Positions 45,901-62,158 of a stretch of DNA of 64,000 bases are shown in pieces. The translations under genes and the position numbers were made by a program. The stretch covers positions 57,491 to 121,490 of the forward strand of contig JAKSNP010000004.1 of the NCBI GenBank assembly GCA_024399655.1, read 5' to 3'. A model generated the notes under the pieces. It had not been told where the DNA came from. It did not search any database and saw only the letters and a program-made list of their open reading frames with translations. Source of the stretch: Paludibacteraceae bacterium. GTDB lineage: Bacteria; Bacteroidota; Bacteroidia; Bacteroidales; Paludibacteraceae. How positions within the stretch are numbered: the stretch's first letter is position 1; every line of letters starts with the position of its first letter.

Positions 45901-45933
45901 GACACGAAATGTCCGAATCTTTTTGTAATTTTG
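45901..45933 (+). promoter_or_regulatory. GACAC-type phage promoter before the WYL gene
   Basis: Palindrome GACACGAAATGTC (45901-45913), 12 nt, TAATTTTG (45926-45933). There is no TTG at -33; that position falls inside the palindrome (CAC). The same layout is found at 57282 and 62126. Confidence 0.65.
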
Positions 45934-45942
45934 CAGTCAATT

Positions 45943-46851
45943 ATGAAAGCGAGCATTTATAATCAGTATCTTTGGCTGATAAATACAATTTATTCAGCCG
46001 GTCAAATTACACTCCCGGAACTGGACGAGAAGTGGGCTCACTCCAACTACAATCTGAAAGGAGAAAATCATTACGGAGCGCGTAGGTTTTTGCGTCATCG
46101 TGACGATATTGTGGATTTGTTTGGCATAGTCATTGAGTGCGACAAGCGCACAGGCAATGTGTATTACATCGCTAATAAGGAGGTGATGAAAGAAGACCAC
46201 CTGCGCAAGTGGCTCCTCAATTCGTTTGCCGTTCACGCGATCTTGCACGAGAGCGAGCCACTGCGTCACCGCATTTTGTTTGAGGACATACCATCAGGGC
46301 ACATGTACCTGCTGCCGATTATTGAAGCTATGCGCGATAATCGGAAAATGGAAATGTCCTACCAAGCGTATTCCCGGAACGAGGCAACTACTTTGGAGTT
46401 TTCCCCCTACTGCTTAAAAGTATTCAAGCAGCGGTGGTATGTGGTTGGCTTCAGCAGTGCCCATCAATCCGTCCGGATTTTTGCGCTTGACCGCATCCTG
46501 TCACTTGCTGCCATGGACGATACTTTCAACCTCCCCAAAGATTTTGTGGCAGACAATTATTTTCGTGGCTATTTTGGTGTAATCCGGGACATCGACACCA
46601 AACCGCAAACTATCCGCATCAAAGTGGAAGCAATGACAGCGAACTATCTTCGTTCCCTGCCGTTGCATAGTTCACAAAAAGAAATTGAACACACGGAAAA
46701 GTACGCCGTGTTTGAATATATGGTGGCTCCCACCTACGACTTTATACAGGAACTCCGTATGCAGGGTGCTAATTTAGAGGTTTTAGCACCGGCTGACCTA
46801 CGGGAGTTATTCAAACAAGAGGCGAAAAAGGCGTTTAACAACTACCGTTAG
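45943..46851 (+). CDS. WYL-domain transcription regulator
   Basis: A 302-residue regulator of the WYL superfamily. The N-terminal winged helix covers about 1-80 (YLWLINTIYSAGQITLPELDEKW), the WYL domain about 120-200 (IEAMRDNRKMEMSYQAY; LKVFKQRWYVVGFSS with the WYV signature at 165-167; VRIFALDRI), and a WCX-like dimerisation tail ends near 295. Relatives (BrxR, CapW) control defence islands through inverted repeats and sense a ligand or nucleic acid. Here a palindrome overlaps its own promoter and recurs twice in the prophage, so it may control a phage regulon. ATG 45943 is about 3-5 nt after the expected transcript start. Confidence 0.85.
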   Translation: MKASIYNQYLWLINTIYSAGQITLPELDEKWAHSNYNLKGENHYGARRFLRHRDDIVDLFGIVIECDKRTGNVYYIANKEVMKEDHLRKWLLNSFAVHAILHESEPLRHRILFEDIPSGHMYLLPIIEAMRDNRKMEMSYQAYSRNEATTLEFSPYCLKVFKQRWYVVGFSSAHQSVRIFALDRILSLAAMDDTFNLPKDFVADNYFRGYFGVIRDIDTKPQTIRIKVEAMTANYLRSLPLHSSQKEIEHTEKYAVFEYMVAPTYDFIQELRMQGANLEVLAPADLRELFKQEAKKAFNNYR

Positions 46852-46879
46852 CACTTTTCCAATCTTTGGACGGCTTTTA

Positions 46880-46911
46880 TTTGCTTGTCTAACAGATATT
46901 TAGTAATTTTG
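46880..46911 (+). promoter_or_regulatory. Promoter of the 46934 gene
   Basis: TTTG (46880-46883), 20 nt, TAATTTTG (46904-46911): the normal host type. Confidence 0.7.
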
Positions 46912-46933
46912 CACTCACAAAGTTTATTGCTTT

Positions 46934-47485
46934 ATGAGTGCTTTTTGTATATACTTGAATTTGCCCACTTATCTTGCCCAATGGTACGCCTACGAGTGCC
47001 GTGCCCATCATTTCATCGAGGAGGACATTTGCCCCAAAGACCCTTATGTGCCCCTCAATCCTGTTGAACCTATCCGCAATTCCCAAGAAAGCCGCATTTT
47101 GGAACAGTTCCTGCAAAAGCAGCCGTCGGCTGTTCCTGAACCGGTGCCGGAGGATGCAACCATCGCTATCGCTATTCCGTATTATCGGGACAAAGACCCA
47201 CGCACTTATAACTATCTTGGCGCACACGCCAAGTTGCTGCTTGCCAAAGCCATTTCGGAACGCTTTAAGCGTGAGATGTGGGACGAACTGCATTGTTTCC
47301 TGTCATACCTCCATCAGCGTGAGCGCAAGGATGAGCTCATTTATTGCTTTATGGAAAACCACGGTATCGAACTCACGGAAACAAATTGGCTTGCCATTGA
47401 TAAAATTTATCAGCGTGCGCGTGATGTGTACCGCACAACGAAAAGCAGAAAAAAGTTATCGACTTCGGGCAAAAAAATACGGTAG
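46934..47485 (+). CDS. Phage protein before the head genes, candidate late regulator
   Basis: 183 residues, not a family I can name. The middle segment AIAIPYYRDKDPRTYNYLGAHAKLLLAKAISERF and the C-terminal helices (ENHGIELTETNWLAIDKIYQRARDVYR, then a Lys/Arg-rich tail TTKSRKKLSTSGKKIR) suggest a nucleic-acid-binding protein. The last helix resembles that of the early protein at 37719. It has a host-type promoter and directly precedes the structural genes, the usual place of late activators such as Mor or C of Mu; this is inference. Confidence 0.6.
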   Translation: MSAFCIYLNLPTYLAQWYAYECRAHHFIEEDICPKDPYVPLNPVEPIRNSQESRILEQFLQKQPSAVPEPVPEDATIAIAIPYYRDKDPRTYNYLGAHAKLLLAKAISERFKREMWDELHCFLSYLHQRERKDELIYCFMENHGIELTETNWLAIDKIYQRARDVYRTTKSRKKLSTSGKKIR

Positions 47486-47530
47486 TGTTTAGCCCTGTTT
47501 AGTATTGTTTAGTGTTGTTTATGTTTTCTT

Positions 47531-47959
47531 ATGGCTGACAAATTTTCACTTCCCGGCATCAAATCCATCGGCTACTTACTCGCCAATCAGTTGGAATCTA
47601 ACATAGCTATGCGCGCACAGGCAGGCATACCTATTGTTATTCCGCGCCCGAACAAAATGGACTTTGCACCCGAACCCACGCCCGAATGCTCTTGTCTGTG
47701 TACCAATGCTAACAATGGCTGTACGGAGAAAGTCAAACTTTCTTTTACATCCCAAACGCTACTCTCGCCCGAAGCCGATTATGCGTTTGTTGTTACCGAC
47801 TGCCACAACTGCTGCTATCTAATCGGTGCTATGGAAGCACCTTTCCCTGTTATGAATCGTACCACCGCGTTTGGATCGCCAGCCGGCGAACCTCGCTCGG
47901 TGGCGTATGAGATTGAATTTGCCTCTATTCGTGCCCTAATTCCTTGCCATACCTCCTAA
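47531..47959 (+). CDS. Phage protein, cysteine-containing
   Basis: 142 residues beginning MADKFSLPGIKSIGYLLANQLES. Two cysteine groups (CSCLCTNANNGC near 53-64; CHNCCYL near 91-97) may bind metal or form disulfides. The build (short N-terminal helix, then beta strands) fits a small virion or head-assembly protein. It lies just before the protease-scaffold gene and after the candidate regulator. Confidence 0.55.
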   Translation: MADKFSLPGIKSIGYLLANQLESNIAMRAQAGIPIVIPRPNKMDFAPEPTPECSCLCTNANNGCTEKVKLSFTSQTLLSPEADYAFVVTDCHNCCYLIGAMEAPFPVMNRTTAFGSPAGEPRSVAYEIEFASIRALIPCHTS

Positions 47960-47976
47960 TTTTGGGGTGTGGCGCG

Positions 47977-48011
47977 TCTTTTCTTATGCCCCTTAAAGAT
48001 TGTACTTTTGC
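47977..48011 (+). promoter_or_regulatory. GTCTTTTC-type late promoter before the protease-capsid genes
   Basis: GTCTTTTC (47977-47984), 19 nt, TACTTTTG (48004-48011). No TTG at -33. Same motif and spacing at 55053 and 58057. Confidence 0.65.
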
Positions 48012-48030
48012 AGCATAATAATTTGCTGCA

Positions 48031-49068
48031 ATGTCTAAATCGTACAATCTTTATCTTCGTGGCTATGTAGGCGGTGCCGATTTTGACGCATCCTATGTTT
48101 CCTACATCCTTTCCAAAAATGCCAATAAATCAGTCGAAGTGCTGATAGATTCGCTCGGTGGTTCACTCGCTACCGCACTTTCCGTTGCTTCTGCTTTTGC
48201 TGACCACGGCGATGTTCACGCCCATTTTGTCGGGATGAATGCTTCTGCCGCTACCATCGCTTCGCTTGGTGCCAAGCGTATCACGATGGACGCTAACGCT
48301 ATGTACCTCGTGCATAAGTGCTCAATGGCGTTTTTCCAATGGGCTTCCCTCAATGCCGACCAACTGGAGCAACAAATCGCCCAAATGGAACAGACCCGCA
48401 CCGACCTTGAGAAGATGGATGCCAATGTCGCTTCCATGTATGCCCGTAAGTGCAAAAAGACGACTGCCGAAATGCTCGCCCTGATGAAAGTCGGTGGCTG
48501 GCTGACAGCGCAAGAGGCACTGGATTGGGGCTTCGTGGACGAACTCACCTCCGCCAAAGAGGACGCTGCTCCTGTTCTTACCGACAAAGTGGCCGCTTCG
48601 ATGGCATCTGTCGGTATGCCTATCCCCAATGTGCCCATTGAGCAGAACTCCGCTTGGGAAAAACTCTGCTCCGCCATTTCGTCCCTGTTAGGTACCAAAA
48701 CTCCCTCTGCTAAACAACCAACCCAAAATACTATCGAAATGAAAAATCTTGTATTACTCGCTTCGGTGTTGGCGTTAGACGCTATCACCTTGCAGGACGG
48801 CAAATGCTCTCTCACGGAGGAACAGCTATCCGCTATTGAGGCACGCCTCAAAGAACTCACGGACGCGCAAACCGCCGCTGCTTCTGCTGCTGAACAGCAC
48901 ACCGCTACTATTGCCGAGAAAGACGCTAAAATCGCTTCTCTGCAAGCCCTATTGGAACAGAAACCTGCTGCTGCAGGTTCGCAAGTCGTTGATGATGGCA
49001 AATCCACTACTGACGATTTTATCGCCTCTGTGAATGCTGCCAATGAGTTGATGGCTCAACTATCGTAA
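48031..49068 (+). CDS. ClpP-like prohead protease fused to a scaffold
   Basis: 345 residues. Residues 1-185 are a ClpP/S14 serine protease: VEVLIDSLGGSLATALSVASAF (36-57), nucleophile S72 in MNASAATIASLG, and H95 in YLVHKC. After a linker, residues about 235-345 are an Ala/Glu/Gln-rich coiled coil (LTEEQLSAIEARLKELTDAQTAAASAAEQHTATIAEKDAKI) as in phage scaffolding proteins. The protease would mature the head and remove the scaffold. It is the first gene after a GTCTTTTC-type promoter. Confidence 0.85.
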   Translation: MSKSYNLYLRGYVGGADFDASYVSYILSKNANKSVEVLIDSLGGSLATALSVASAFADHGDVHAHFVGMNASAATIASLGAKRITMDANAMYLVHKCSMAFFQWASLNADQLEQQIAQMEQTRTDLEKMDANVASMYARKCKKTTAEMLALMKVGGWLTAQEALDWGFVDELTSAKEDAAPVLTDKVAASMASVGMPIPNVPIEQNSAWEKLCSAISSLLGTKTPSAKQPTQNTIEMKNLVLLASVLALDAITLQDGKCSLTEEQLSAIEARLKELTDAQTAAASAAEQHTATIAEKDAKIASLQALLEQKPAAAGSQVVDDGKSTTDDFIASVNAANELMAQLS

Positions 49069-49093
49069 CTAACAACCATAAACTTATACTACT

Positions 49094-50206
49094 ATGGCAG
49101 GAAAATTAACATTTACACTTGAGCAGTACCAAGATGCTGCGCGCAAGTTCAAAAAGGAGTTACTGATGTTGCCCATCTTGGGTAGCAAAGACACGCTCCA
49201 ATTTATGACTGGTCGCCCCGGAATCCGTTACAAAGAAACTGTGGGGACTGCTGACTATTCCGCACAATTCGGTCCGTACAATCCTTCGCGCCGTTCAAAC
49301 GAAAACCTCAAACTCGACTTCCGTACCTTGGAAACTTTCTTGGGTTCTGTTGTATCGGATTTTGAGCCGAACTCCGCTATTTCTACGCTCCTTGGTCAAG
49401 GTGCTACGAAAGGCGATGGTCAGATGCAAACGCCTACTGCTAAACTCGTTTTGGCTCTTATGGCAAAGTCGCTGTCCTATAATTTGAACAACGCCATTTG
49501 GGGTGCTACTCGCAACCCGAACGGCTCCACCACGATGGATTTGTTTGATGGCTTCGACACCATCACTTCCAAGGAAATTGTGGCAGAGACTATCTCCGCG
49601 AGCAAAGGCAACTACCTGAAGCTGACCGACCAAATCACCAAGCAGAACTGCTGTGATGTACTCAAAGACATTCTTTTCCACCTCGACCCGCACCTCCGCG
49701 CTCAAAACCTCTACGCGTACTGCTCACAGGAAATCGTTGATATGTACAACGAATCCTACCAACTGTCGCACGGTGGACTGCCCTACAACACCAAGTATGT
49801 GCAGAACGCTGTCGAGGGTTCAGATGGTCGCTTGATCCTTGTGCCGTTGGCTAACAAGTCCAACTCCAAATTTATCCACATCACCACCAAGGCAAACATG
49901 CTGTATGGCTATGACAACATGGGAGACGAAACTTCCATCAATGTTAAGGAGTTTTCGCCCTTTATGCTCTCCTTTATTGCCACGATGTTCTTTGGTGTTC
50001 AGTTTGAAACCATTGATAAACGCCGCTTCAAAGTCATTGAGTTTGCAGACGAAACGCCTGCTCCTCAAGGTGGAGAGGGTGGCGACAACCAACCCGAAAA
50101 CGGTGGCAATGGTAGTGGTGCAGGTGCTGGTGAGGGAAGCGGCAACGGTGGCAATAACAACCCCGAAAATGGTGGTGACAATAACCCCGAAAACGCTCCC
50201 GAATAA
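49094..50206 (+). CDS. Probable major capsid protein
   Basis: 370 residues, placed right after the protease-scaffold gene, the usual spot for the capsid. It has a long helix at the start (FTLEQYQDAARKFKKELL), then mixed alpha-beta sequence and no catalytic motif. The last 45 residues are an unusual Gly/Asn/Glu tail with repeated PENGG or NPENGG units, likely disordered and exposed. The next gene ends in a similar acidic tail. HK97-type fold is assumed from context, not seen in a motif. Confidence 0.7.
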   Translation: MAGKLTFTLEQYQDAARKFKKELLMLPILGSKDTLQFMTGRPGIRYKETVGTADYSAQFGPYNPSRRSNENLKLDFRTLETFLGSVVSDFEPNSAISTLLGQGATKGDGQMQTPTAKLVLALMAKSLSYNLNNAIWGATRNPNGSTTMDLFDGFDTITSKEIVAETISASKGNYLKLTDQITKQNCCDVLKDILFHLDPHLRAQNLYAYCSQEIVDMYNESYQLSHGGLPYNTKYVQNAVEGSDGRLILVPLANKSNSKFIHITTKANMLYGYDNMGDETSINVKEFSPFMLSFIATMFFGVQFETIDKRRFKVIEFADETPAPQGGEGGDNQPENGGNGSGAGAGEGSGNGGNNNPENGGDNNPENAPE

Positions 50207-50279
50207 TAAACAACGCAACTCTGCTGGGACTACTCCCTGCAGAGCTGCTTAATTAGCAACCCTAAAAATACAACGCAAT

Positions 50280-50897
50280 ATGTCACAATCTTGTTCACCT
50301 ATGCAACAGTCCCTGACTTGGTGCCCCGGTACACCCGAACTGCCCGGCATCAAAAGTCGCATCTATTACATCGCTAAATCGTTGATAGCCCAATGGCCTA
50401 CTTTGCCTACTGACGCGCACGGTCGCCCTACAGCAGCAAAGTACACAGGTTCGTTTGTCCTCGTGGCAGACGCTACTTGGAAGCGTATTGATGTGCTGCC
50501 CGATAAGTGCCAAGTCACTTCCGAGGCGCAGGGAGAAGTCCCCAGCCAAACGCAGCTCAATAAACTCACTGCCGTCCATCCAGCCGTTGGTGAGGAAGCC
50601 AGCGCAGCAGCCGCCTATATCAACAACACGGACAATGTGTTCCTTGTTGAGACGATGAAAAGCAAGTTCCGCGTCATCGGTAATGATATGTGGAATACCA
50701 AATCTACTGTCGCCCAAGACCTCGGTCAGGGTGCTACTGGTACCACCTCCACCACTATCACCGCAGAGGCAGCCGATGTGGTACCTGCTCCGTTCTATGA
50801 GGGCGAAATCGTCACAGATGCTGGCACCATCAATCCCTTGGAGGAGGAAGACGAAAATGGTGGCGATAATGGTCCCGAAAATCCCGAAGAAGACTAA
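50280..50897 (+). CDS. Phage head-associated protein
   Basis: 205 residues starting MSQSCSPMQQSLTWCPGTPELPGIKSRI. Mostly beta with a Gly/Thr-rich zone; the acidic tail (EEEDENGGDNGPENPEED) echoes the capsid tail, so the two may share a partner or origin by local duplication of the tail. A decoration or tail-tube-like structural role is a guess from position. It touches the next gene (TAATG-type junction). Confidence 0.6.
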   Translation: MSQSCSPMQQSLTWCPGTPELPGIKSRIYYIAKSLIAQWPTLPTDAHGRPTAAKYTGSFVLVADATWKRIDVLPDKCQVTSEAQGEVPSQTQLNKLTAVHPAVGEEASAAAAYINNTDNVFLVETMKSKFRVIGNDMWNTKSTVAQDLGQGATGTTSTTITAEAADVVPAPFYEGEIVTDAGTINPLEEEDENGGDNGPENPEED

Positions 50898-51523
50898 TGG
50901 GATTATTCTCTCTATCGGAAGCAACAGATATGTCGGGGGCTATAAAGACCCCCGATGTATCTTTGGCGCAGAAAGATATTTTTGCCGAAAACGCAGCGCG
51001 TAAGGGTTGGCACAAAGACGAAGCCACGGCAGCGCGCTGTGATCTATCTATTGAACACATCGCTACTTCTCCCCACGCTGGCTGTCAAGTGATTTCGATT
51101 TGGAAGAAGTCCATAAAAGGACGACTTCTTACAGATATTAAAGCAGACGACAATATGGTCGCCTACTTTGCCAATCACATGACACCTGTTATTCAAGCCA
51201 TCTTGGGGCAGTATCTTTCCCAAGGCGGCTATGCTATTTGTGCCACTCCGAAACGGCGACACTTGACAAAGAACTTTGCCTGTCGTATCGCCTCGGAGAT
51301 TGCCAATAAATTGGGCATCCCTTATTATGAGGATGTAGCGTTAGCGCATACGCGCCAGCGTGTCAATGTGGATTTTGATTTGGGCACACTACCGCCCGAA
51401 CCTAATCTGATAATCTTTGATGATTTCGTTACAACAGGTTCAACCATCGCCTCTATGCGCCGACTGCTTGAACCCCTCGGCAAAAATCTTACTTTCTTTG
51501 TCGGGATAAATAATAACATGTAG
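50897..51523 (+). CDS. Phosphoribosyltransferase-like protein
   Basis: 208 residues. The PRPP-binding loop of type I phosphoribosyltransferases is clear: LIIFDDFVTTGSTIASM (171-187). An upstream ATPKRRHLTKNFACRIASEIAN resembles the ComF-type substrate region. The N-terminal 60 residues are unique. In the middle of a head operon this is odd: possible roles are nucleotide salvage, base modification, or interference with host signalling. It overlaps the preceding stop by 1 nt and is 1 nt from the next gene. Confidence 0.72.
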   Translation: MGLFSLSEATDMSGAIKTPDVSLAQKDIFAENAARKGWHKDEATAARCDLSIEHIATSPHAGCQVISIWKKSIKGRLLTDIKADDNMVAYFANHMTPVIQAILGQYLSQGGYAICATPKRRHLTKNFACRIASEIANKLGIPYYEDVALAHTRQRVNVDFDLGTLPPEPNLIIFDDFVTTGSTIASMRRLLEPLGKNLTFFVGINNNM

Positions 51524-51524
51524 T

Positions 51525-52094
51525 ATGGACCAAAAACTTACACAGGAAATCCAAAATTGGCTGGCTATGCCTGCTGATAAACGCACCATTGCAGACCTGC
51601 AACATGGTGCTTTGCTTGTTCTCCGTTTGTCAAACAACCAAATTTTATATAACAACCTGGTACGCAACCCACAGCAGCGCGCCGCCGATATTGAGTATCA
51701 GCTCAAAAAGTACGCCCAGTTCCGACTGGCTAATCTCACGCACGAGCAGGTTGTTACTATGCAGGCACAGGTGAACACGATTGCAAAACGCGATCACCTC
51801 GATACGCCCACCAATACGCCGGCTGAAAAGCGTGCCGCTACTTTGGAGTTTAAGAAAGGCAAGCGCGCCGACCATGATTCGTTACCTAAAGAGATACAAG
51901 CCCTCTATGTGGAAAACTTGTCTCTCTTGCAGAAAATGCGCAATCTCCATACGAAGCTTACGCTTTTGAGTACCGAGCAGCACACTTGCCCCGATTCGGA
52001 ACGCTATCCTTTCTTAAAGGAACTCATTGCCCTCGATAAGACCTACCACGCTAATTGGAAACAGTACGACACTTTCGGTCGTGATGGTGAATGA
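51525..52094 (+). CDS. Helical phage protein
   Basis: 189 residues, almost wholly helical with a basic middle (AATLEFKKGKRADHDSLPKEI) and heptad-like segments (ENLSLLQKMRNLHTKLTLL). No family recognised. It lies between the phosphoribosyltransferase and the PLD-like gene and overlaps the latter by 4 nt, so the three are translated together. Confidence 0.55.
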   Translation: MDQKLTQEIQNWLAMPADKRTIADLQHGALLVLRLSNNQILYNNLVRNPQQRAADIEYQLKKYAQFRLANLTHEQVVTMQAQVNTIAKRDHLDTPTNTPAEKRAATLEFKKGKRADHDSLPKEIQALYVENLSLLQKMRNLHTKLTLLSTEQHTCPDSERYPFLKELIALDKTYHANWKQYDTFGRDGE

Positions 52095-52609
52095 AAAGAG
52101 GTCAGACGATAGCAGATTACTTGCGCCCATTGGCAGACGCACCTTTGCAGTGCTACCTTACCAATGTTCTCCAAGTGGCAGATGTTATTGAGTGGGTGCT
52201 GTCCCAAGTCGGGAAAGCCACCATTTGGCAAACATCTTTCTCTATTTCGGAGGAGTTTTTGCGCCGCCTGTACTTCATAGAGAAGTCGGGAAAAGTGGAT
52301 AAGATAAATCTTATACTGGATTTCAAGGCGACTAACAAAACCCTCCGACTGTGGGCTTTTCTCACGCAGGTTATCGAAAACACTTTCCTCGCTGACAACC
52401 ACAGCAAGGTTATTCTCATTCGGTCAGAAGCTGGCGAAACGGTCAGCATCATTACCTCACAGAACCTGACGCGCGGTAATCGTATGGAATCGTCCGTAGT
52501 CACCACAGACAAAGCTGTTTTTGACACGCTCCATACTCAAATAGACGACCTCATTACTAACCATTCCGTCCCTCTCTCCGAGTTGTTTCGGAATAAAATT
52601 GCCGACTAA
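52091..52609 (+). CDS. PLD-like single-motif phosphodiesterase
   Basis: 172 residues. The C-terminal half has the phospholipase D catalytic pattern of nuclease-type members: H104-x-K106 (NHSKVILI), S123-x-N125 (ITSQNLTRGN) and E133. One HxK motif per chain means a dimer is needed for a full active site, as in Nuc and BfiI. The strand before it (KINLILDFK) also fits. It may cut DNA, RNA or phospholipid; in this operon a nuclease is the likeliest. It overlaps the next gene at TAATG. Confidence 0.65.
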   Translation: MKRGQTIADYLRPLADAPLQCYLTNVLQVADVIEWVLSQVGKATIWQTSFSISEEFLRRLYFIEKSGKVDKINLILDFKATNKTLRLWAFLTQVIENTFLADNHSKVILIRSEAGETVSIITSQNLTRGNRMESSVVTTDKAVFDTLHTQIDDLITNHSVPLSELFRNKIAD

Positions 52610-52839
52610 TGCAAACTATCCATTTTTCCACCGCACAAGCGATGCTTAATACCCCTGACCCTGTGGACCTCTCCGTTTGGAAGTCTGACGGCTCTATTAT
52701 GGAACTGCACAACTGCATTTCCCTCAAATACAATTTTTACGCTGGCACGCGCACTATAAAATTGCTGAACTCCAACCAAATCCGAACGGTTCGTGATGTT
52801 TGCATTTTCCGCGTCAATGGGTTAGAGGTCATTCTCTAA
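52609..52839 (+). CDS. Small phage protein
   Basis: 76 residues with beta-strand character (LHNCISLKYNFYAGTRTIKLLN, RDVCIFRVNGLEVIL). No family recognised. Its start overlaps the PLD-like stop, which makes it part of the same translational unit. Confidence 0.55.
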   Translation: MQTIHFSTAQAMLNTPDPVDLSVWKSDGSIMELHNCISLKYNFYAGTRTIKLLNSNQIRTVRDVCIFRVNGLEVIL

Positions 52840-52936
52840 TTTTGGGCGTTCCTTTGCTTCCTGTCAGTCGCAAGGGCGGGCTATTCGGGAGTGCCGTGCT
52901 ATGCACCATTAAAATGTCCCTACTATCCCTAACGCG
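52840..52936 (+). repeat. Dispersed intergenic repeat, copy 2
   Basis: Begins TTTTGGGCGTT and ends ACTATCCCTAACGCG like the copy at 40870-40948, with an insertion in the middle. It marks the left border of the secreted beta-helix cargo unit. Confidence 0.6.
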
Positions 52937-53007
52937 TCACTAAAATGAGGTTTATCTTAAAAATTGGGCAGTTTTCATTAAAAAATGAATTTTGTGAGCC
53001 CTAAAAA

Positions 53008-54999: not shown

Positions 55000-55025
55000 C
55001 CAACAGAAAACCACATAAGCAAAAG

Positions 55026-55052: not shown

Positions 55053-55087
55053 GTCTTTTCCCCTCTCTTATATTCTCCGTATCTTTG
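55053..55087 (+). promoter_or_regulatory. GTCTTTTC-type late promoter before the portal gene
   Basis: GTCTTTTC (55053-55060), 19 nt, TATCTTTG (55080-55087). Confidence 0.65.
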
Positions 55088-55107
55088 CAGCATAAAACCT
55101 GCGCGAT

Positions 55108-56427
55108 ATGGAGATTTCTTTTTCATCGGTTCATTACATACCACAGCTAAAGGCGACTGCCATTTTCCACTCTGATTCGGCAGCCATCTTCCGTGAGGAT
55201 GGCGATATCCCCGAAAAGATTATAGACGAACGCACCACCTATATCCCTTGGGGTGGTGACGACCAACTCCCCTACAATGTGCTGCAAAAGATAGAGGAGG
55301 ACGAAACCCTCACTACCTGTCAGCAGTTCAACGCCGAAGTCTGCTATGGTGCAGGGCTTGCCTATAACACCGAAAAAGCCACCCAAGCAGTTAAAGACGA
55401 AGTGGAGGACTTCGTTCTTAATAACTGCCTGCCATCTTACTATCTCGGTGTTTGTCAAGACCTCAAACACTTCGGCTTCTGTGTTTCTGTCCTCTATCTT
55501 TCCGGGGATGGTAAACGCATTGTCGCTATTGCGCGTAAAGAAGCGTGCTATTGCCGTTTCACGAAAGCGGACAAACAGGGGCAAATTCATGAAGTCCTCT
55601 ACGCGAACTGGCGGCGATGTGTGCAGGCAGAGGATGTGGAGCATATCTCTCTGCTCAACACTTTGGCACCTTGGTACGACCTCCAAACAAGGATGGCCGT
55701 TGGTACCAAATGCCGCAAATTTGCCATCGTCACGCGCATACCGACACCCGACAGCACATATTACCCCATACCGTACTATGCCGCTTTGTTCAAGTCAAAG
55801 TGGTACGATATTAAGCAGCTAATCGCCACAGCCAAAAAAGCCAAGTTGGAAAACTCCGCGCCTATTAAATACCACATCGAGGTGGCAGATAAGTATTGGC
55901 AAAGCATTTTCAAGCGTGAGGGAATTACCGACCCCAAGAAGCAGATCCAGCGTGCCAATGAGGAAAAGGCGCGCATTATTGATTTCCTCACAGGGGCTGA
56001 AAATGCAGGTAAAGTGTGGTTCTCCTCCTACTATATTACGCCTGACGGCAAGGAGCAGCACGATGTCGTTATAAACAACATCGACAACTCCAAAGAGGGA
56101 GGAGATTGGGAATCGGACATACAGGAAGCCGTCAATATGATTTGCTTTACCACAGGGGTACACTCCAATCTTGTCGGCTCCGTTCCGGGCAAGTCCCAAA
56201 TGAACAATTCGGGTTCTGACAAACGCGAGTTGTACACGATTGCGCAGGCACGGCAAAAGCCGTATCACGACCTGCTGTTTATTCCTCATCGCATCATTAT
56301 TCGCTTCAATCGTTGGGCGAATGTTGTTCCTGAATGTCCGTTCCTGATGCTCACCACCTTGGACGAGCATACGGATGCCAAAAAAGTAAACATAGATAAT
56401 CCCAATAGCCATGCTGATACAAACTGA
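55108..56427 (+). CDS. Probable portal protein
   Basis: 439 residues, the right size for a portal. It has DERTTYIPWGGDDQLPYNVLQKI near 40-62, a mixed alpha-beta wing region, and a long C-terminal helical part (QIQRANEEKARIIDFLTG; DIQEAVNMICFTTGVHSNLVGS; IIIRFNRWANVV) like the stem and crown of phage portals. No enzymatic motif. Its own late promoter and place between the capsid block and the terminases support the call, although the order is unusual. It overlaps the next gene by 17 nt. Confidence 0.65.
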   Translation: MEISFSSVHYIPQLKATAIFHSDSAAIFREDGDIPEKIIDERTTYIPWGGDDQLPYNVLQKIEEDETLTTCQQFNAEVCYGAGLAYNTEKATQAVKDEVEDFVLNNCLPSYYLGVCQDLKHFGFCVSVLYLSGDGKRIVAIARKEACYCRFTKADKQGQIHEVLYANWRRCVQAEDVEHISLLNTLAPWYDLQTRMAVGTKCRKFAIVTRIPTPDSTYYPIPYYAALFKSKWYDIKQLIATAKKAKLENSAPIKYHIEVADKYWQSIFKREGITDPKKQIQRANEEKARIIDFLTGAENAGKVWFSSYYITPDGKEQHDVVINNIDNSKEGGDWESDIQEAVNMICFTTGVHSNLVGSVPGKSQMNNSGSDKRELYTIAQARQKPYHDLLFIPHRIIIRFNRWANVVPECPFLMLTTLDEHTDAKKVNIDNPNSHADTN

Positions 56428-57238
56428 CCAAGAACTTCGTTCTTATCTTCCTAATGTTTTTGCCACCTGTGACGGGGAGGTTTCTCTATTCGACAAACTG
56501 AATTTCTTTTTGTCTAATTCGGAAAGGTGGCTTGCAGCGTATTTCGTGGGCGATACCCACCTTGCTACCATCAGTTCCTCCTCCGGCTCACCGCTTCGCT
56601 CTCTGTGTTGTCAGATTGTTGTTGCTGACGCGTTCCATGGCGCGCTCCCGTCTCTCGACCTCGTTCTTACGCCCAATGGCTTCGGCATAGTGAGCAATAA
56701 CAATGTCGCCCCTGCAAGTGCGGATCGTGTCAATCGGCTCGGCGACGCGCTGATTGCCAACCGCGACCAACTCCTTACATCGCTCTTGCTTTCACTTGCT
56801 GAAGACAATGCTTGGCGTGAATCAGAACAAGGACAGTATTTCGCCGCTACATTGTGGCCAGATTTACATTTGGCTACGATGTGCGGTTATACTTCCGAGA
56901 AATGGGAGCATTACCGAACGCTCCGAAATGCGCTTATTACCATTGAGCGCGAACTGGCGGAAAAGTATATCTCTGATGTACTTTACAGCCGTTTTCGGCA
57001 GCATTTTCTTTCGCGGTCTATGACCGTTCAGGAAAAGCCAATAATCGACACACTCCGTTCGCTGGAGGTGGAACTGCTGCAAGGCAAGCCGCTGAACTAT
57101 TCGCTTCTGATGTCGCTTGTTCAGCAAATACGCTCCGACACCACCCATTTTGCCGAGTGGCAGACCTCTGCCACAGCGCAACTTTACCAGTTGCCACAAT
57201 TCGAGAACAAAAAGAAATCCACCGCTTTTTGGTGGTAA
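56411..57238 (+). CDS. Phage head-completion-like protein
   Basis: 275 residues, helical, with LTSLLLSLAEDNAWRESEQGQYFAATLWPDL and a final aromatic STAFWW. It resembles the DUF6712-type proteins next to portals in Bacteroidetes phages, but I hold this loosely. The start overlaps the portal stop in another frame. Confidence 0.5.
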   Translation: MLIQTDQELRSYLPNVFATCDGEVSLFDKLNFFLSNSERWLAAYFVGDTHLATISSSSGSPLRSLCCQIVVADAFHGALPSLDLVLTPNGFGIVSNNNVAPASADRVNRLGDALIANRDQLLTSLLLSLAEDNAWRESEQGQYFAATLWPDLHLATMCGYTSEKWEHYRTLRNALITIERELAEKYISDVLYSRFRQHFLSRSMTVQEKPIIDTLRSLEVELLQGKPLNYSLLMSLVQQIRSDTTHFAEWQTSATAQLYQLPQFENKKKSTAFWW

Positions 57239-57281
57239 AATACTAAAAAATGCACTTTTTTTGAATTTTTTTTGACATTCG

Positions 57282-57314
57282 GACACCAAATGTCTGCTTC
57301 TCGTTGTATCTTTG
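57282..57314 (+). promoter_or_regulatory. GACAC-type phage promoter before the secreted 57340 gene
   Basis: GACACCAAATGTC (57282-57294), 12 nt, TATCTTTG (57307-57314), no TTG at -33. An outer repeat also pairs GACATT (57274-57279) with AATGTC (57289-57294). Confidence 0.65.
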
Positions 57315-57339
57315 TAGCGAAATTAAAAACTTTCTATCT

Positions 57340-57894
57340 ATGAAAAAGGTATTTTTTATGTTGATGGCTGCCATAGCAACCACCGCAATGGCTCAAACAA
57401 TTACTTATGAGCAAATCGAAAACTCCACCGACCCTAAAGCCGAGTTTCAAAAGGAGTATTCGGAGTATGTAGCGTCTGACGGACACACCTACAAAGTGGG
57501 TGATAAAATCACCATCGGTATGCCGCAGTCGAACAAAACATTTGCCTATATGACTTCGGAAATGGGCATCGCTGCTGCCGCTATGGGTGGTGGTCCTGTT
57601 CCTGGTATTAATGCTCAATATGCAGGAACGGACATGCAGATTAAGCAGATCAAGGTACAACGCAATAAAAAACGCGGTGCTACTGTCACTTTCCGCACTT
57701 ACCTCGCAGGGCTTGGTGGCGTGCTTGTTCAAATTGAGAATTGCATTGCTTCAGGTGAAATCGTCAGCCAAGGCATGACCCCCGACAAAGCCCTTGCTGA
57801 ATTGAAGAAAGCCAAGGACAAACTCGAATTGGAGGTTATCACCCAACAGGAGTTTGACAGCATTAAAGCCGAGTTAATGCCATATCTTAAATAA
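57340..57894 (+). CDS. Secreted protein, phage cargo
   Basis: 184 residues with a signal peptide (1-19, ending AMAQ). The mature part has GHTYKVGDKITIGMPQSNKTFAYMTSE near 47-75, a Gly-rich turn and a C-terminal helix with an EVITQQEFDSIKAELMPYLK short-helix motif like the SHOCT-type tails of bacterial envelope proteins. Not a virion-type protein. It has its own promoter of the WYL-palindrome class, which suggests it is switched together with the WYL gene. Function unknown. Confidence 0.7.
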   Translation: MKKVFFMLMAAIATTAMAQTITYEQIENSTDPKAEFQKEYSEYVASDGHTYKVGDKITIGMPQSNKTFAYMTSEMGIAAAAMGGGPVPGINAQYAGTDMQIKQIKVQRNKKRGATVTFRTYLAGLGGVLVQIENCIASGEIVSQGMTPDKALAELKKAKDKLELEVITQQEFDSIKAELMPYLK

Positions 57895-57915
57895 CATTGA
57901 AATTTTGCAAATAAA

Positions 57916-57947
57916 TTTGCGTATGTCGTAAATTTGTTGTACTTTTG
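57916..57947 (+). promoter_or_regulatory. Promoter of the 57949 RNA
   Basis: TTTG (57916-57919), 20 nt, TACTTTTG (57940-57947): host-type consensus. The next convincing reading frame starts 149 nt later, beyond a terminator. Confidence 0.7.
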
Positions 57948-57948
57948 C

Positions 57949-58060
57949 AGTGGTTTCTCAATTAAGCAGCCTTCTTCCTGCGGAAGATTGTACCGGGCGC
58001 AATGCTCGAAGTAGGCGCAATGCCGAAAATTAGCTTGATTGGGAAACCACTTTTTTGTCT
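57949..58060 (+). ncRNA. Structured small RNA with repeated GCAAT loops
   Basis: From promoter to T-run the RNA folds on itself: 5' AGTGGTTTCTCAATTAAGC (57949-57967) pairs with 3' GCTTGATTGGGAAACCACT (58033-58051, two G-U pairs), followed by TTTTTT. Inside are TCTTCC-TGC-GGAAGA (57973-57987), CGGGC-GCAAT-GCTCG (57994-58008) and GGC-GCAAT-GCC (58014-58024); the last two share the ten-mer GGCGCAATGC and the same loop. The closing stem doubles as terminator. No reading frame of note. I do not know the family. Confidence 0.7.
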
Positions 58061-58091
58061 TTTCTGCTGTGGGGTAATTATATTACCTTTG
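58057..58091 (+). promoter_or_regulatory. GTCTTTTC-type late promoter before the 58096 gene
   Basis: GTCTTTTC (58057-58064), 19 nt, TACCTTTG (58084-58091). The ATG is 4 nt past the box, so translation is leaderless or nearly so. Confidence 0.65.
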
Positions 58092-58095
58092 CAGC

Positions 58096-58824
58096 ATGGA
58101 AATACTTAATCTCACAATCCCCACTTGTTGGCAGGAGTTATCCCCTAAACAACTCCGCTATGTTTATTTCCTGCTGTCGCAGGACTATACCGCAGAGCAA
58201 CTCAAAACGCTCTGCCTTTGCCGTTGGGCAGGTATTGAAATCGTTTGCCCGGAGGGTGACGGCTATTCTATCCGCCACGATTTCAAGGTTAGGCATATTA
58301 CCGCCCTGCAAATAGCGGAAGTGTTGCACCATCTCGACTGGCTCGATTCACTTCCCGCTTTTCCTGTACGCTTGGCTGCTATTGGCAAGCACCAAGCTGT
58401 CAGTGCCGATTTGCAAGGCGTTTCTTTTGAGCATTATATCGTACTTGATAATCTCTATCAAGGTTATCTGCATACCCGAAACACACAGCTACTGGAGCAG
58501 ATGGCAGCGTATTTATATAATGCTCCTGACGAGGCAATTACACTCACCGAAGAAGAACGCATCTCTATCTTCTATTGGTTCGCGTCAGTTAAACAGTTGT
58601 TTGCTCGGAAGTTTAAGCACTTTTTCGTTACAGCCGACAATAGCATTTCTACCGACCTTCGCCGACAGATCGAGGACGGTATCAATGCTCAAATTCGTGC
58701 GCTCACCAAGGGCGACATTACAAAGGAGGACACCGTTCTCCATAGTGATGTCTATCGCGCACTAACCGAACTCGACGCGCTCGCTCGTGAATATGAGGAA
58801 TTGAAAAAACAGACAAAGATATGA
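58096..58824 (+). CDS. Phage structural-region protein
   Basis: 242 residues, helical, starting MEILNLTIPTCWQELSPKQLRYVYFLLSQ. The C-terminus is a charged helix (LTELDALAREYEELKKQ). The build, with a WxxLSxKQLRYV opening, is one I associate with Bacteroidetes phage hypothetical proteins, without known function. It is under a late promoter of the same type as capsid and portal, so a virion or assembly role is likely. Confidence 0.55.
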   Translation: MEILNLTIPTCWQELSPKQLRYVYFLLSQDYTAEQLKTLCLCRWAGIEIVCPEGDGYSIRHDFKVRHITALQIAEVLHHLDWLDSLPAFPVRLAAIGKHQAVSADLQGVSFEHYIVLDNLYQGYLHTRNTQLLEQMAAYLYNAPDEAITLTEEERISIFYWFASVKQLFARKFKHFFVTADNSISTDLRRQIEDGINAQIRALTKGDITKEDTVLHSDVYRALTELDALAREYEELKKQTKI

Positions 58825-58897
58825 AATCTTGTGCAAGGCAAGTCCAAGCCGTGCTTGAGCAACTTGCCGTAGCCAAGATTAGATAAATTGAAAATTT

Positions 58898-59416
58898 ATG
58901 AACACCAAAAGCAACTGGGACGCAAGCACATTTTTCCAAACCCTAACCGCCCAAAATAAACTCGCGCAGCAACACGCTTTCACTTTCTGCCGTGTTTCGG
59001 GACTTAACGGCTTCCAAGAGGCACTCTCAAAAATGCAGGCAAAGCAGAACTTTGTGTGCGTTTCTGATATAGCGCAAGGTTACACCTCACTCGAAAACTC
59101 GCCGCATACGCGCCGCGTCAAGACGGTGTTTCTCGCTATGCGCTATCCTCTCGATAATATGGCAGCACGCCAAGACCGAATGGACACGATGCAGGAGTTG
59201 TTTCGCCAGTTTATGTCCAAACTCATTTTGGAAAAAACGCACATTGCGGAAAATTACATTTACCTCGATGAGCGCATCACCTTTAACGAAATAGACGAGT
59301 ATTTCTTTGCAGGTTGTGCTTGCACTTATTTTCAGGTTGCTGTTGATGTTTATACTGATTTACGGCTGAACGAAAATGAGTGGCTGCCTGCCGAACCACA
59401 CCCAGCCACGGAATAG
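58898..59416 (+). CDS. Phage structural-region protein
   Basis: 172 residues. FTFCRVSGLNGFQEALSKMQAKQNFVCVSD and the long strand-helix pattern after it (RRVKTVFLAMRYPLDNMAARQDRMDTMQEL; ACTYFQVAVDVYTDLRLNENEW) could be a head-tail connector or tail-completion protein. No motif decides. It is 73 nt after the 58096 gene, likely in the same transcript. Confidence 0.55.
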   Translation: MNTKSNWDASTFFQTLTAQNKLAQQHAFTFCRVSGLNGFQEALSKMQAKQNFVCVSDIAQGYTSLENSPHTRRVKTVFLAMRYPLDNMAARQDRMDTMQELFRQFMSKLILEKTHIAENYIYLDERITFNEIDEYFFAGCACTYFQVAVDVYTDLRLNENEWLPAEPHPATE

Positions 59417-59511
59417 ACATCTACCTGCGGTGCTGCTCGCTTCGCTCGATATATTTAGGACATTTAGGCGGTGGTTACACCACGACTGAAAAGGGACATC
59501 TACCTCCGGTG
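59416..59511 (+). repeat. Three GACATctAC repeats, possible packaging site
   Basis: GACATCTACCTGCGGTG (59416-59432), GACATTTAGGCGGTGG (59459-59474, shorter) and GACATCTACCTCCGGTG (59495-59511) lie just before the small-terminase-like gene, where pac or cos recognition sequences are often found. Confidence 0.5.
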
Positions 59512-59543
59512 GTGGGGCTACCGCCCATTAAAAAGCAATTAGT

Positions 59544-59819
59544 ATGGAACTGACACAAGACCAGCTCAAAGACCTTGAGGGCTACGCTTCAATTTACCTC
59601 AAAATAACCGATATTGCGGTTATTCTCGGTGTGCGTCCGGACGAACTCCGAAACGAGATAAATCTCGTTGGCTCGCCTGCTTATAATGCCTACCATAGGG
59701 GTAAGGCGTTATCCAAGGTACAACTCCACCAACAGGAAATGACCCTTGCCAAAGTGGGCTCGCCATTGGCTTTGCAGAACGCACGCGACAATCTTTTAGA
59801 TATGGAGGACGATGAGTAA
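59544..59819 (+). CDS. Small HTH protein, possible terminase small subunit
   Basis: 91 residues. YASIYLKITDIAVILGVRPDELRNEI (14-39) is a helix-turn-helix, followed by AYHRGKALSKVQLHQQEM and a second helix, like the DNA-binding part of phage small terminases. The stop overlaps the next start (TAATG), in a set that leads to the large terminase. Confidence 0.65.
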   Translation: MELTQDQLKDLEGYASIYLKITDIAVILGVRPDELRNEINLVGSPAYNAYHRGKALSKVQLHQQEMTLAKVGSPLALQNARDNLLDMEDDE

Positions 59820-60427
59820 TGCTACCAAAGATTATTGATATTTGCCACACAGACTTGTTTACGGCAGAAGACGAACTGCTCACCAAGTACAACCCCCAGC
59901 AGGTGCAGCACATAGTGCGCTTGCGAGATATGTATAATTGGTTCCTCTCGTTCCCGGACGCGACCGACCGCCAGTTTGTCGATGAATTCAAATCACGCTA
60001 TCAGTTAGGACGGTCAAAGGCATTTGCCGACCTTGCACTGATTAAAACCCTGCTCCCATCTATCTCCTCTGCAAGTCGAGATTTCCACCGTTTCCGTTAT
60101 AATGAAATGATCCTTGAAACTTACCACATGGCGAAAGCTCGCAAGGACACGAAAACGATGGAGAAAGCAGCGTCCTCTTATGCCAAGTTTAACCGCGTAG
60201 ATTTGGAGGACGAACAGGCAGTACCTTACGAGGATATCGTTATCCAACCCTTTGTGCCTACAATGGACCCGACCGTCCTTGGTATGCACGCTGTTCCTAA
60301 TCTTGACCGCAAGATACAGGAACTGCTCAAAGAGATGGGCACCTCTGACATTGAGGACATCGAGTTTGAGGAGGTGGACTTGGAAGAAAAAGAATTATTC
60401 CCTTTACCGCAAGAAACCAATGGCTGA
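59819..60427 (+). CDS. Terminase-associated protein, possible small subunit
   Basis: 202 residues. An N-terminal HTH-like segment (DATDRQFVDEFKSRYQLGRSKAFADLALI) is followed by a helical oligomerisation region (RFRYNEMILETYHMAKARKDTKTMEKAASSYAKF) and an acidic tail (IEDIEFEEVDLEEKELF), an arrangement seen in small terminase subunits. Either this or the 59544 product, or both together, may recognise the packaging site. It overlaps the large terminase by 8 nt. Confidence 0.6.
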   Translation: MLPKIIDICHTDLFTAEDELLTKYNPQQVQHIVRLRDMYNWFLSFPDATDRQFVDEFKSRYQLGRSKAFADLALIKTLLPSISSASRDFHRFRYNEMILETYHMAKARKDTKTMEKAASSYAKFNRVDLEDEQAVPYEDIVIQPFVPTMDPTVLGMHAVPNLDRKIQELLKEMGTSDIEDIEFEEVDLEEKELFPLPQETNG

Positions 60428-62066
60428 TATATATTTCAACAAACCCCAGTTGCTCACCCAACTAATTGGCGCGCAGACGACAGTTATTGTCGCCGGCCGC
60501 CGTACTGGTAAGACAGACAGCATCGCCTCACCTTTTGTGCTTCGTAATGTGCAGCGCATGGCAGGTTCGACAGGTGGAATAGTTGTGCCCACTTTCAAAC
60601 ACGGACTTACCAACACTATTCCCGGACTGCTTGCCGCTTGGAAGCGATGGGGGTTCAAGGAGGGCATCCACTATGTTGTGGGCAAGAAACCGCCCAAGTC
60701 CTTTGGCAAAGCCATCATAGAACCTGCCGAGTATGAGCATGTGATTTCGTTCTATAATGGTAGCCGTGCTATCATTATTTCACAGGACCGACCGGGTTCG
60801 TCTAACTCCCTGACGCTTTCGTGGCTCCTGATAGACGAAGCCAAATTCATAGATTACGAGAAACTCAAAGACGAAACGCTCCCTGCTAATGGTGGCATTA
60901 AGACCTATTTTGGCAAGCACTCTTTCAACCATTCGATAATGATCTTATCGGATATGCCCACTACCAAAAAAGGTTCGTGGTTCCTACAGTACAAGTCCAA
61001 GATGAACAATGAACTGATAGAAACGATTAAAGCCACCATCTATGAAATTTGGCGTACCAAGCAGCGTGTCCGCGAGTTGCGCAAGAAACAGCAGCAGGTG
61101 CCTGACTATCTCAAAACGCGCTTACGGACGCTCGACAGGCACCTCAACCAAATGCGCTCGGTGGCAGTTTACTACAAAGAGTATTCTTCCATCGAGAACC
61201 TGCAACTGCTTGGAGAGAATTATATCCGGCAAATGAAACGCGACCTTACGCCGCTTACTTTCCGCACCTCTATTTTGTGCCAACCTGTCGGCATTTCCAA
61301 AGACGGCTTTTATTCCTCGATGAGGGAGGGGCACAAGTACAATGCTTCAGACTTTGAGTATTTAGATACCCTTGGCTGGAACCCCGACCCGTCAGCCCTC
61401 GATAGTCGTGCTGACAAGGATATCAATCCTGACGCGCCCATTTGTGTCGGGATGGACTACAACGCCAATATCAACTGGATTGTGGCAGGACAGCCCACCG
61501 CACAGAAAGCTACGCCTAACGGCAGCGCGCACCGCCTCAATGTGGTCAAGTCCTTTTACACCAAATTTGAAGAAAAAATCCCTGCACTTATCCGTAACTT
61601 TTGCACCTACTACAAGCACCATCGCAACAAGACTGTCGTCTATTATTACGATACCACCGCGCTGGGTAGTAACTACGCCGTCAATGAGCAGGACTTTCAT
61701 TGGGTAGTGTGCAATGAGTTTGACCGTCACGGCTGGCGTGTGATTGATGTGTACTTGGGCAACCCTATGAAACACGATGAAAAGTACTTGCTCATCAATC
61801 AGGCATTTGCCGGCAAGCAGTCGCTTATGCCTTTCTTCAACCGCCAAAACAATGACGATCTGATTTTGGCTATCCAAACAGCAGGCGTTTACAATGGGCG
61901 CAATGGTTTCCACAAGGACAAGGGAGGAGAGAAGAACCCCGAAACGGAGGAGGACCTGCTGGAGCATCGCACCGATGGCACAGACGCTTTCGATACGCTG
62001 TTTATCGGTTGTGAAAAATTCCCCCAAGACGAGTTTACCCAGTTTAATTTTTCGGGAGTTTCATAG
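60420..62066 (+). CDS. Terminase large subunit
   Basis: DNA-packaging motor, 548 residues. The ATPase has Walker A AGRRTGKT (25-32), the adenine-stacking region before it (LLTQLIGAQTT) and Walker B SWLLIDEAKFID near 137. The nuclease half begins CVGMDYNANINWIVAGQP near 342 and has YYDTTALGSNYA and the late LLEHRTDGTDAFDTLFIGC with acidic metal ligands. Start at ATG 60420 inside the end of the preceding gene. It is the last clear structural gene in the window. Confidence 0.9.
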   Translation: MADIYFNKPQLLTQLIGAQTTVIVAGRRTGKTDSIASPFVLRNVQRMAGSTGGIVVPTFKHGLTNTIPGLLAAWKRWGFKEGIHYVVGKKPPKSFGKAIIEPAEYEHVISFYNGSRAIIISQDRPGSSNSLTLSWLLIDEAKFIDYEKLKDETLPANGGIKTYFGKHSFNHSIMILSDMPTTKKGSWFLQYKSKMNNELIETIKATIYEIWRTKQRVRELRKKQQQVPDYLKTRLRTLDRHLNQMRSVAVYYKEYSSIENLQLLGENYIRQMKRDLTPLTFRTSILCQPVGISKDGFYSSMREGHKYNASDFEYLDTLGWNPDPSALDSRADKDINPDAPICVGMDYNANINWIVAGQPTAQKATPNGSAHRLNVVKSFYTKFEEKIPALIRNFCTYYKHHRNKTVVYYYDTTALGSNYAVNEQDFHWVVCNEFDRHGWRVIDVYLGNPMKHDEKYLLINQAFAGKQSLMPFFNRQNNDDLILAIQTAGVYNGRNGFHKDKGGEKNPETEEDLLEHRTDGTDAFDTLFIGCEKFPQDEFTQFNFSGVS

Positions 62067-62125
62067 GCATTTTAACCCGAAAACGCACTTTTTATCAAAA
62101 AAAGTTCATTTTTTTTTGCAGATGG

Positions 62126-62158
62126 GACACTTTTTGTCCCACCTGTGTAGTATCTTTG
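62126..62158 (+). promoter_or_regulatory. GACAC-type phage promoter after the terminase
   Basis: GACACTTTTTGTC (62126-62138; the wider palindrome is TGGGACA-CTTTT-TGTCCCA), 12 nt, TATCTTTG (62151-62158). No TTG at -33. The transcript would start with a small hairpin (TGAAAG-C-GGCA, TGCC-C-TTTCA, 62164-62188). Confidence 0.65.

What the first reader, a model, noticed from the sequence alone, without database searches (positions are those of the whole stretch)
45901..62158. A second regulon: GACAC-N4-TGTC palindrome at a fixed 12 nt from the -7 box
GACACGAAATGTC (45901), GACACCAAATGTC (57282) and GACACTTTTTGTC (62126) each end exactly 12 nt before TAnnTTTG, and each replaces the -33 TTG. The three transcripts are the WYL regulator itself, a secreted protein and the post-terminase small gene. 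The WYL protein is the natural candidate binder. Because the site stands where -33 should be, activation is as likely as repression. A fourth promoter (53031) has the TGTC half at the same distance.
Basis: partly seen in the sequence, partly recalled or inferred. Interest (0 to 1): 0.8.

Follow-up and report, generated by a model that had tools for sequence, protein, structure and literature searches.

The report
Prophage WYL activator promoter code
A virus sleeping in a gut bacterium's genome carries a regulator gene and three near-identical DNA sites, each at one exact distance from a promoter core; the same arrangement stands beside relatives of this regulator in other bacteria, which suggests a shared on-switch rather than chance.

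Summary
The three palindromes are real: GACAC-N4-TGTC at 45901, 57282 and 62126, each exactly 12 nt before TAnnTTTG, without a -33 TTG at 19-21 nt. The held genome has one more such promoter, divergent from its second WYL gene of this family. The arrangement follows WYL genes: of 79 distinct relatives fetched by the WYL protein alone, 30 have a G.CA-N5-TG.C dyad exactly 12 nt before TAnnTTTG beside them, against 0-4 at other spacings; in a later set 7 of 20, against 0-3. Viral loci picked by head genes, mostly without a WYL gene, show no such peak. The dyad extends beyond the letters used to find it, its half-site follows the WYL tree, and a T-tract lies upstream. The predicted fold is closest to DriD, an ssDNA-triggered activator whose GAC-N7-GTC site overlaps -35 at a fixed distance from -10. 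Best reading: a WYL dimer stands in for the -33 contact and activates its own gene plus two prophage transcripts, probably on DNA damage. Binding, activation and signal are inferred. The 'fourth promoter' (53031) is an ordinary TTG-N20 promoter; cas9, downstream of the genome's fourth site, has its own promoter.

The parts
45885..45891 (+). T-tract upstream of operator 1 (possible UP-like element)
   Evidence: sequence; T-tract at this position in WYL-linked site promoters
45901..45913 (+). Operator 1, GACACGAAATGTC, before the WYL gene
45926..45933 (+). -7 box TAATTTTG, 12 nt after operator 1
45943..46851 (+). WYL regulator (302 aa; N-terminal wHTH predicted, WYL and WCX domains)
   Evidence: Pfam WYL 4e-17 and WCX 2.2e-10; predicted fold nearest DriD
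57266..57273 (+). T-tract upstream of operator 2
   Evidence: sequence
57282..57294 (+). Operator 2, GACACCAAATGTC, after the DUF6712 gene
   Evidence: a site in the same place after a 60%-identical DUF6712 gene in L249
57307..57314 (+). -7 box TATCTTTG, 12 nt after operator 2
57340..57894 (+). Secreted-protein gene (184 aa, signal-peptide-like start by eye), likely prophage cargo
   Evidence: translation; no Pfam match, one weak PHROG match of unknown function, E 0.0028, no match in the phages collection
62109..62117 (+). T-tract upstream of operator 3
   Evidence: sequence
62126..62138 (+). Operator 3, GACACTTTTTGTC (GGGACA-N5-TGTCCC), after the terminase gene
62151..62158 (+). -7 box TATCTTTG, 12 nt after operator 3
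62214..62399 (+). Small ORF after operator 3 (TTG start, 61 codons); coding status unsure

Best explanation
A prophage-encoded WYL activator that works like DriD or PafBC controls three promoters of its own prophage. A homodimer binds the dyad G.CA-N5-TG.C (here GACA-N5-TGTC), whose centre lies about 18.5 nt before the -7 box TAnnTTTG, over the place where sigma-ABfr would read -33. The operator letters leave no room for a TTG at the usual 20 nt, so the promoters should be weak alone; the bound dimer, perhaps with an alpha-CTD contact on the upstream T-tract, holds the polymerase at one fixed distance. One site gives positive autoregulation; the other two switch on cargo transcripts (secreted protein, post-terminase). 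By analogy, single-stranded DNA bound to the WYL domain is the probable trigger, so the regulon would answer DNA damage or phage replication. Shown: sites, fixed spacing, linkage to WYL genes, dyad symmetry, missing -33, predicted fold. Inferred: binding, dimer, activation, ssDNA as signal.
For: Fixed spacing: own genome 4 of 4 sites at 12 nt with 6-18 allowed; genus, 178 genomes, 22 of 30 GACACN4TGTC sites at 12 nt, next best 4 at 14 nt, 4 matches of the reversed control. Linkage: 30 of 79 distinct WYL genes fetched by protein alone have a site at 12 nt, 0-4 at each of the 30 other spacings; later set 7 of 20, others 0-3; no peak in 74 head-gene loci. Dyad: in the 30 site promoters of those 79 genes, complementarity at offsets 5, 7, 8, 9 and 11 from the centre (letters not used for selection) is 0.77/0.83/0.73/0.63/0.60 against 0.50/0.64/0.38/0.41/0.32 with shuffled partners; offset 10 shows none, 0.33 against 0.28. 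Cognate pair: half-site type needs 4 changes on the tree of 29 such proteins against 8.4 shuffled, 5 against 15.2 on 39. Activator logic: TTG at N20 in 0 of 30 site promoters against 88 of 313 other promoters; T at -39 in 93% against 34%. Fold: DriD on top in Foldseek and VIA-align. Literature: DriD consensus GAC(X)7GTC, site over -35 at a constant distance from -10 (PMC12340889, a preprint, passages).
Against: No binding or expression data. 49 of 79 WYL relatives have no detectable site, and of 9 new WYL genes from viral or phage records only 1 has one. Unconditioned, GCCA-N5-TGGC across 247 genomes of the order is only weakly peaked at 12 (14 of 128, 7.5 expected; 19 nt also has 14), and the reversed control pattern matched in many of those genomes too. 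Of 9 GACA-type sites at 12 nt in 61 relatives (22 matches over all spacings) one is in a genome with no WYL match (G052). The host's own WYL protein (C14, 43% identical) could be the binder in vivo. The relaxed rule (5 of 6 core letters) was set after seeing the first relatives. 5 of the 30 site promoters have TTG at N19 to N21, and many ordinary promoters lack it (only 120 of 313 have TTG at N19-21), so its absence alone does not prove activation.
Confidence: 0.68

Rival explanations
1. Same binder, opposite sign: the WYL dimer is a repressor (like BrxR or CapW) that sits over the promoter and blocks polymerase until a signal releases it; the WYL gene is autorepressed.
For: WYL repressors exist and bind inverted repeats with a 5-bp spacer before their own gene (PMC9122601, passages); BrxR and CapW are also among the fold matches. 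A site at this place would also exclude polymerase.
Against: A repressor site has no evident reason to stay at one exact distance or to exclude -33; BrxR's repeats lie downstream of the -10 box; DriD ranks above BrxR/CapW (best E 3e-13 against 2e-8).
Confidence: 0.2
2. The sites belong to the host: a chromosomal WYL regulator (such as the one on C14) runs a damage or defence regulon, and the prophage promoters listen to it, the phage WYL being a redundant or competing copy.
For: The G333 prophage-like locus has the site after its DUF6712 gene, while the only WYL gene found in that genome is on another contig. The C14 WYL protein groups with TGTC-type users in the tree, and the gene divergent from it has a GACA-N5-TGTC site at 12 nt.
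Against: The window and L014 prophages carry the site directly before their own WYL gene. The site beside the G333 WYL gene (L258) is GACA-N5-TAGC, not the exact GACA-N5-TGTC of its prophage.
Confidence: 0.2
3. The palindrome is not an operator but an alternative -33/-35 element read by another sigma factor, or a chance family of similar promoters.
For: It replaces -33 at a fixed distance; Bacteroides thetaiotaomicron has a second promoter motif (PMC7366714, passages).
Against: The -7 box is the ordinary TAnnTTTG; the element is a dyad wider than 13 bp, its letters change with the WYL protein, and it is found beside WYL genes.
Confidence: 0.05

Closest known systems
DriD of Caulobacter crescentus (WYL activator, SOS-independent DNA damage response)
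   Same: wHTH-WYL-WCX layout and best fold match; operator core GAC-N7-GTC, same geometry as GACA-N5-TGTC; site overlaps -35 at a constant distance from -10 (PMC12340889, passages).
   Different: Bacteroidota promoter (TAnnTTTG); encoded on a prophage; operator letters vary between relatives (GACA, GCCA, GACT and other classes); ssDNA trigger not tested.
PafBC of mycobacteria (sigma adaptation)
   Same: WYL activator that inserts between sigma domain 4 and promoter DNA at promoters with a -26 motif (PMC11804915, passages); sequence match E 3.8e-11.
   Different: PafBC is a heterodimer: one HTH reads the -26 motif, the other contacts sigma, and it does not bind promoter DNA without polymerase. 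Here a dyad suggests a homodimer.
SiwR of Mycobacterium smegmatis
   Same: Homodimeric WYL activator, 19-bp imperfect palindrome between the -35 and -10 regions, -26 region needed (PMC10693628, passages).
   Different: Other host; regulates DinB-like genes; operator letters were not compared.
BrxR / CapW WYL regulators of phage defence
   Same: WYL fold; BrxR has an autoregulatory inverted repeat with a 5-bp spacer (PMC9122601, passages).
   Different: BrxR is a repressor with 11-bp arms downstream of the predicted -10 (CapW as a repressor is recalled); weaker fold match.

Membership tests
WYL-domain transcription factors (wHTH-WYL-WCX) | WYL domain | tested here: met
   PF13280 4e-17, 62.4 bits against cut-off 21.8
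WYL-domain transcription factors (wHTH-WYL-WCX) | WCX extension | tested here: met
   PF25583 2.2e-10, 41.2 bits against cut-off 23.9
WYL-domain transcription factors (wHTH-WYL-WCX) | N-terminal winged HTH | tested here: met
   helices 2-19, 24-32, 46-60 and strands 64-67, 73-76 in the model, block pLDDT 82-91 for residues 11-80; full-length alignment to DriD. No Pfam HTH hit
DriD/PafBC-type WYL activators | fold closest to DriD/PafBC | tested here: met
   Foldseek rows 1-7 and VIA rows 1-6 are DriD; PafBC follows; pTM only 0.55 and whole-chain rmsd large (13.8 or more), so domain placement is unsure
DriD/PafBC-type WYL activators | operator over -35 at a constant distance from -10 | tested here: met
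   12 nt in 3 of 3 window sites and in 30 of 79 WYL neighbourhoods, other spacings 0-4
DriD/PafBC-type WYL activators | activates transcription on binding ssDNA | not testable with these tools
   needs protein and transcription assays
BrxR-type WYL repressors | operator downstream of -10 with long (about 11 bp) arms | tested here: not met
   sites end 12 nt before the -7 box; arms 4-6 bp in the window
Canonical sigma-ABfr promoter | -7 TAnnTTTG | tested here: met
Canonical sigma-ABfr promoter | -33 TTG about 20 nt upstream | tested here: not met
   no TTG at 19-21 nt in the three promoters; 88 of 313 comparison promoters have it at 20

The most novel reading that the evidence does not exclude
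Bacteroidota have a widespread LexA-independent, ssDNA-triggered damage response run by WYL activators that replace the -33 contact of sigma-ABfr at an invariant 12 nt; its targets include HIRAN, RtcB, HAD-type RNA repair, ArdC-like and restriction genes, and prophages have captured both the activator and its promoter code to time their own cargo genes, or listen to the host's copy.
Probability: 0.4. Interest if true: 0.85.

Novelty: new variant of a known kind. Interest (0 to 1): 0.68.

Why it matters
It suggests a readable promoter code: where G.CA-N5-TG.C stands 12 nt before TAnnTTTG near a WYL gene, candidate regulon members can be listed from sequence. It would carry the DriD/PafBC way of activation into a phylum with its own promoter type and into prophages, and it makes the question of how gut Bacteroidales and their prophages sense DNA damage directly testable. 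In my ten paper searches (open-licence PMC papers only; listings seen, and passages of six papers) I saw no description of this operator or of such a WYL regulon in Bacteroidota.

Tried and rejected
Cas9 control: the genome's fourth site lies upstream of a 64-aa gene, with cas9 and cas1 further downstream. I do not claim a cas9 link, because cas9 has its own TTTG-N20-TAACTTTG promoter, and homologues of the small gene occur in 19 of 178 genomes of the genus, the own one included, some directly behind dyad promoters (L239, L243, L244) or a HIRAN gene (L238).

53031 as a fourth promoter: set aside, canonical -33.

Promoter and terminator scans near 57282 were at chance level; one 'terminator' was operator 2 itself. 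No tRNA in the window to mark an attachment site.

Order-wide search for GCCA-N5-TGGC without regard to WYL genes: only a weak peak.

Bias found on checking: the first count over all WYL genes held (38 of 99 distinct) includes 22 genes from loci fetched later, some of them fetched because they carry the site. The headline count is therefore that, restricted to the 81 loci fetched by the WYL protein alone (79 distinct). Searches use the wider set; one search repeats them on the restricted one. Near-copies are counted apart. L014 and L181 hold the same contig stretch.

The control ORF set also peaks at 12 nt (47 of 396 ORFs with a promoter, other spacings 0-9), because its windows take in the same WYL-neighbour sites and possible true targets; I rely on the spacing comparison, not on that odds ratio.

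Left out before counts: 6 of 113 WYL hits without a protein of 200 aa; 10 of 30 later WYL genes as duplicates; 14 of 67 first ORFs (12 WYL genes and two others, L042:2096-2296 and L070:5805-7802) from the Pfam scan.

The recognition-helix test ignores relatedness and uses the wider set; the tree counts show clustering, which near-copies also cause.
Full report
What is in the window. The element looks like a prophage: primase-like gene with DUF5906 (38204), ArdA (43605), ArdC-like gene (45418; below Pfam's cut-off), WYL regulator (45943-46851), head maturation protease (48031), portal-like protein (55108; weak, E 8e-4), DUF6712 (56411) and terminase large subunit (60387). The contig ends at the window's end. 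By a composition model about 0.004 such promoters were expected within 19 spacings of the window's 83 TAnnTTTG.

Own genome. GACAN5TGTC with a gap of 6-18 nt before TAnnTTTG occurs four times in 1.41 Mb, all four at 12 nt, none with the reversed pattern. A looser pattern fixed at 12 nt gave 16 matches with up to one mismatch; only the same four have none (reversed control: 6 matches). The held genome, about 75% complete, has two genes of this WYL family. The fourth site lies on contig C14 between the second WYL gene and a divergent 64-aa gene.

Relatives. 80 genome loci (the best of 173) and one viral locus with WYL relatives were fetched by the protein alone. In these 81 loci (1.29 Mb) GCCAN5TGGC stood within 30 nt before TAnnTTTG 17 times, 15 at 12 nt; GACAN5TGTC 2 of 2 at 12 nt; the control arms GTCA and GGCA never. 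With a relaxed core (5 of 6 letters of G.CA.....TG.C), 30 of the 79 distinct WYL genes (62 have any TAnnTTTG close by) have a site at 12 nt; the 30 other spacings give 0-4. Over all WYL genes held at that point the count was 38 of 99, others 0-5, but that set includes loci fetched because they carry the site. The relaxed rule was chosen after the first look, so it was repeated on WYL genes fetched later: of 30, 10 duplicates were dropped; 7 of the 20 new ones have a site at 12 nt, other spacings 0-3. These are mostly from the same genus or order. The viral and phage records did poorly: 1 of 9 new genes. 74 viral loci fetched for related head or portal proteins, 5 of which encode a WYL relative, show no peak (5 at 12 nt, other spacings up to 12).

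The genus. In 178 genomes GACACN4TGTC before TAnnTTTG gave 30 matches, 22 of them at 12 nt, next best four at 14 nt; the reversed control gave 4. In 61 relatives GACAN5TGTC gave 22 matches, 9 at 12 nt; one of these nine is in a genome with no WYL match. In L245-L248 one site directly follows a distant WYL gene (30-32% identity) and another lies about 5-7 kb away. In L249 a site follows a DUF6712 gene 60% identical to the window's, the same place as operator 2, and leads to a different small secreted-type protein; the only WYL gene found in that genome is on another contig. In L014/L181, a related prophage (nine genes corresponding to window 46934-52839, 36-84% identical), one site precedes the WYL gene, a Y-family polymerase and an S24 peptidase (UmuD-like) gene lie divergently, and two tandem sites precede a HIRAN-like gene.

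What the sites control. First ORFs behind relaxed sites at 12 nt, near or far from WYL genes, were scanned as one set (53 of 67; 12 WYL genes and two others left out): HIRAN in 10, AAA in 6, RtcB in 2, HAD_SAK_2 (RNA repair) in 2, ArdC N-terminal domain in 2, restriction-type families (REase-ARP, GmrSD) in a few. The themes, nucleic-acid repair and conflict, fit a damage response but were not tested, and some far sites may be chance.

Anatomy of the promoter. In the 30 site promoters of the protein-fetched set the dyad extends past the letters used to find it: complementarity at offsets 5, 7, 8, 9 and 11 from the centre is 0.77, 0.83, 0.73, 0.63 and 0.60, against 0.50, 0.64, 0.38, 0.41 and 0.32 when partners are shuffled; offset 10 shows nothing (0.33 against 0.28). 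TTG at 20 nt, the peak of ordinary promoters (88 of 313), is absent (0 of 30); 5 of 30 have one at 19-21. A T-tract lies 34-40 nt before the -7 box (T 50-93% per position; 28-38% in 313 other promoters).

Operator and protein go together. The right half-site needs 4 changes on a tree of 29 WYL proteins from the protein-fetched set against 8.4 for shuffled labels, and 5 against 15.2 on the wider 39-protein tree; no shuffle was as low (0 of 200 each), but near-copies contribute. In the predicted recognition helix R-x-F, x is T in 18 of 19 TGGC users and in 5 of 15 TGTC users of the wider set (relatedness not removed).

Mechanism. The predicted structure (mean pLDDT 82.5, pTM 0.55) is closest to DriD, including its activation complex, then PafBC, then BrxR/CapW. 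DriD's consensus is GAC(X)7GTC; it is an activator triggered by ssDNA and lies over -35 at a constant distance from -10 (PMC12340889, preprint, passages). PafBC and SiwR act in the same promoter zone (PMC11804915 and PMC10693628, passages). The simplest reading is that the WYL dimer supplies the upstream contact that -33 normally gives. Shown here: sites, spacing, linkage, dyad, missing -33, predicted fold. Inferred: binding, activation, ssDNA as signal, and that the phage rather than the host WYL is the binder.

Verdict. The fourth promoter is to be dropped, and a tempting link to the CRISPR-Cas9 genes on C14 is not supported, since cas9 has its own promoter.

Noticed in passing
L086 2109-7620 (own genome C14): Type II CRISPR genes (cas9, cas1) downstream of a 64-aa gene whose promoter carries the fourth site; cas9 has its own canonical promoter.
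   Followed up: partly
window 62694-64000: ORF running off the contig end; its start resembles AlbA/Schlafen-type regulators (recalled, not scanned), behind a TTTG-N20-type promoter at 62479.
   Followed up: no
L069 3232, 4260, 5285: Three near-identical dyad promoters about 1 kb apart, each before one of three related genes (one search lists three YdcK-type beta-solenoid matches, probably these).
   Followed up: no
L181, -7 boxes at 6080 and 6163: Two tandem sites 83 nt apart, both 12 nt before a -7 box, ahead of one HIRAN-like gene.
   Followed up: no
L014 8157-9865: S24 peptidase (UmuD-like) and Y-family polymerase genes divergent from the prophage WYL gene.
   Followed up: no
WYL-linked promoters: A small second count at 2 nt spacing (4 of 79, 3 of 20 later ones; all three of the later ones also have the 12-nt site); cause unknown.
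   Followed up: no
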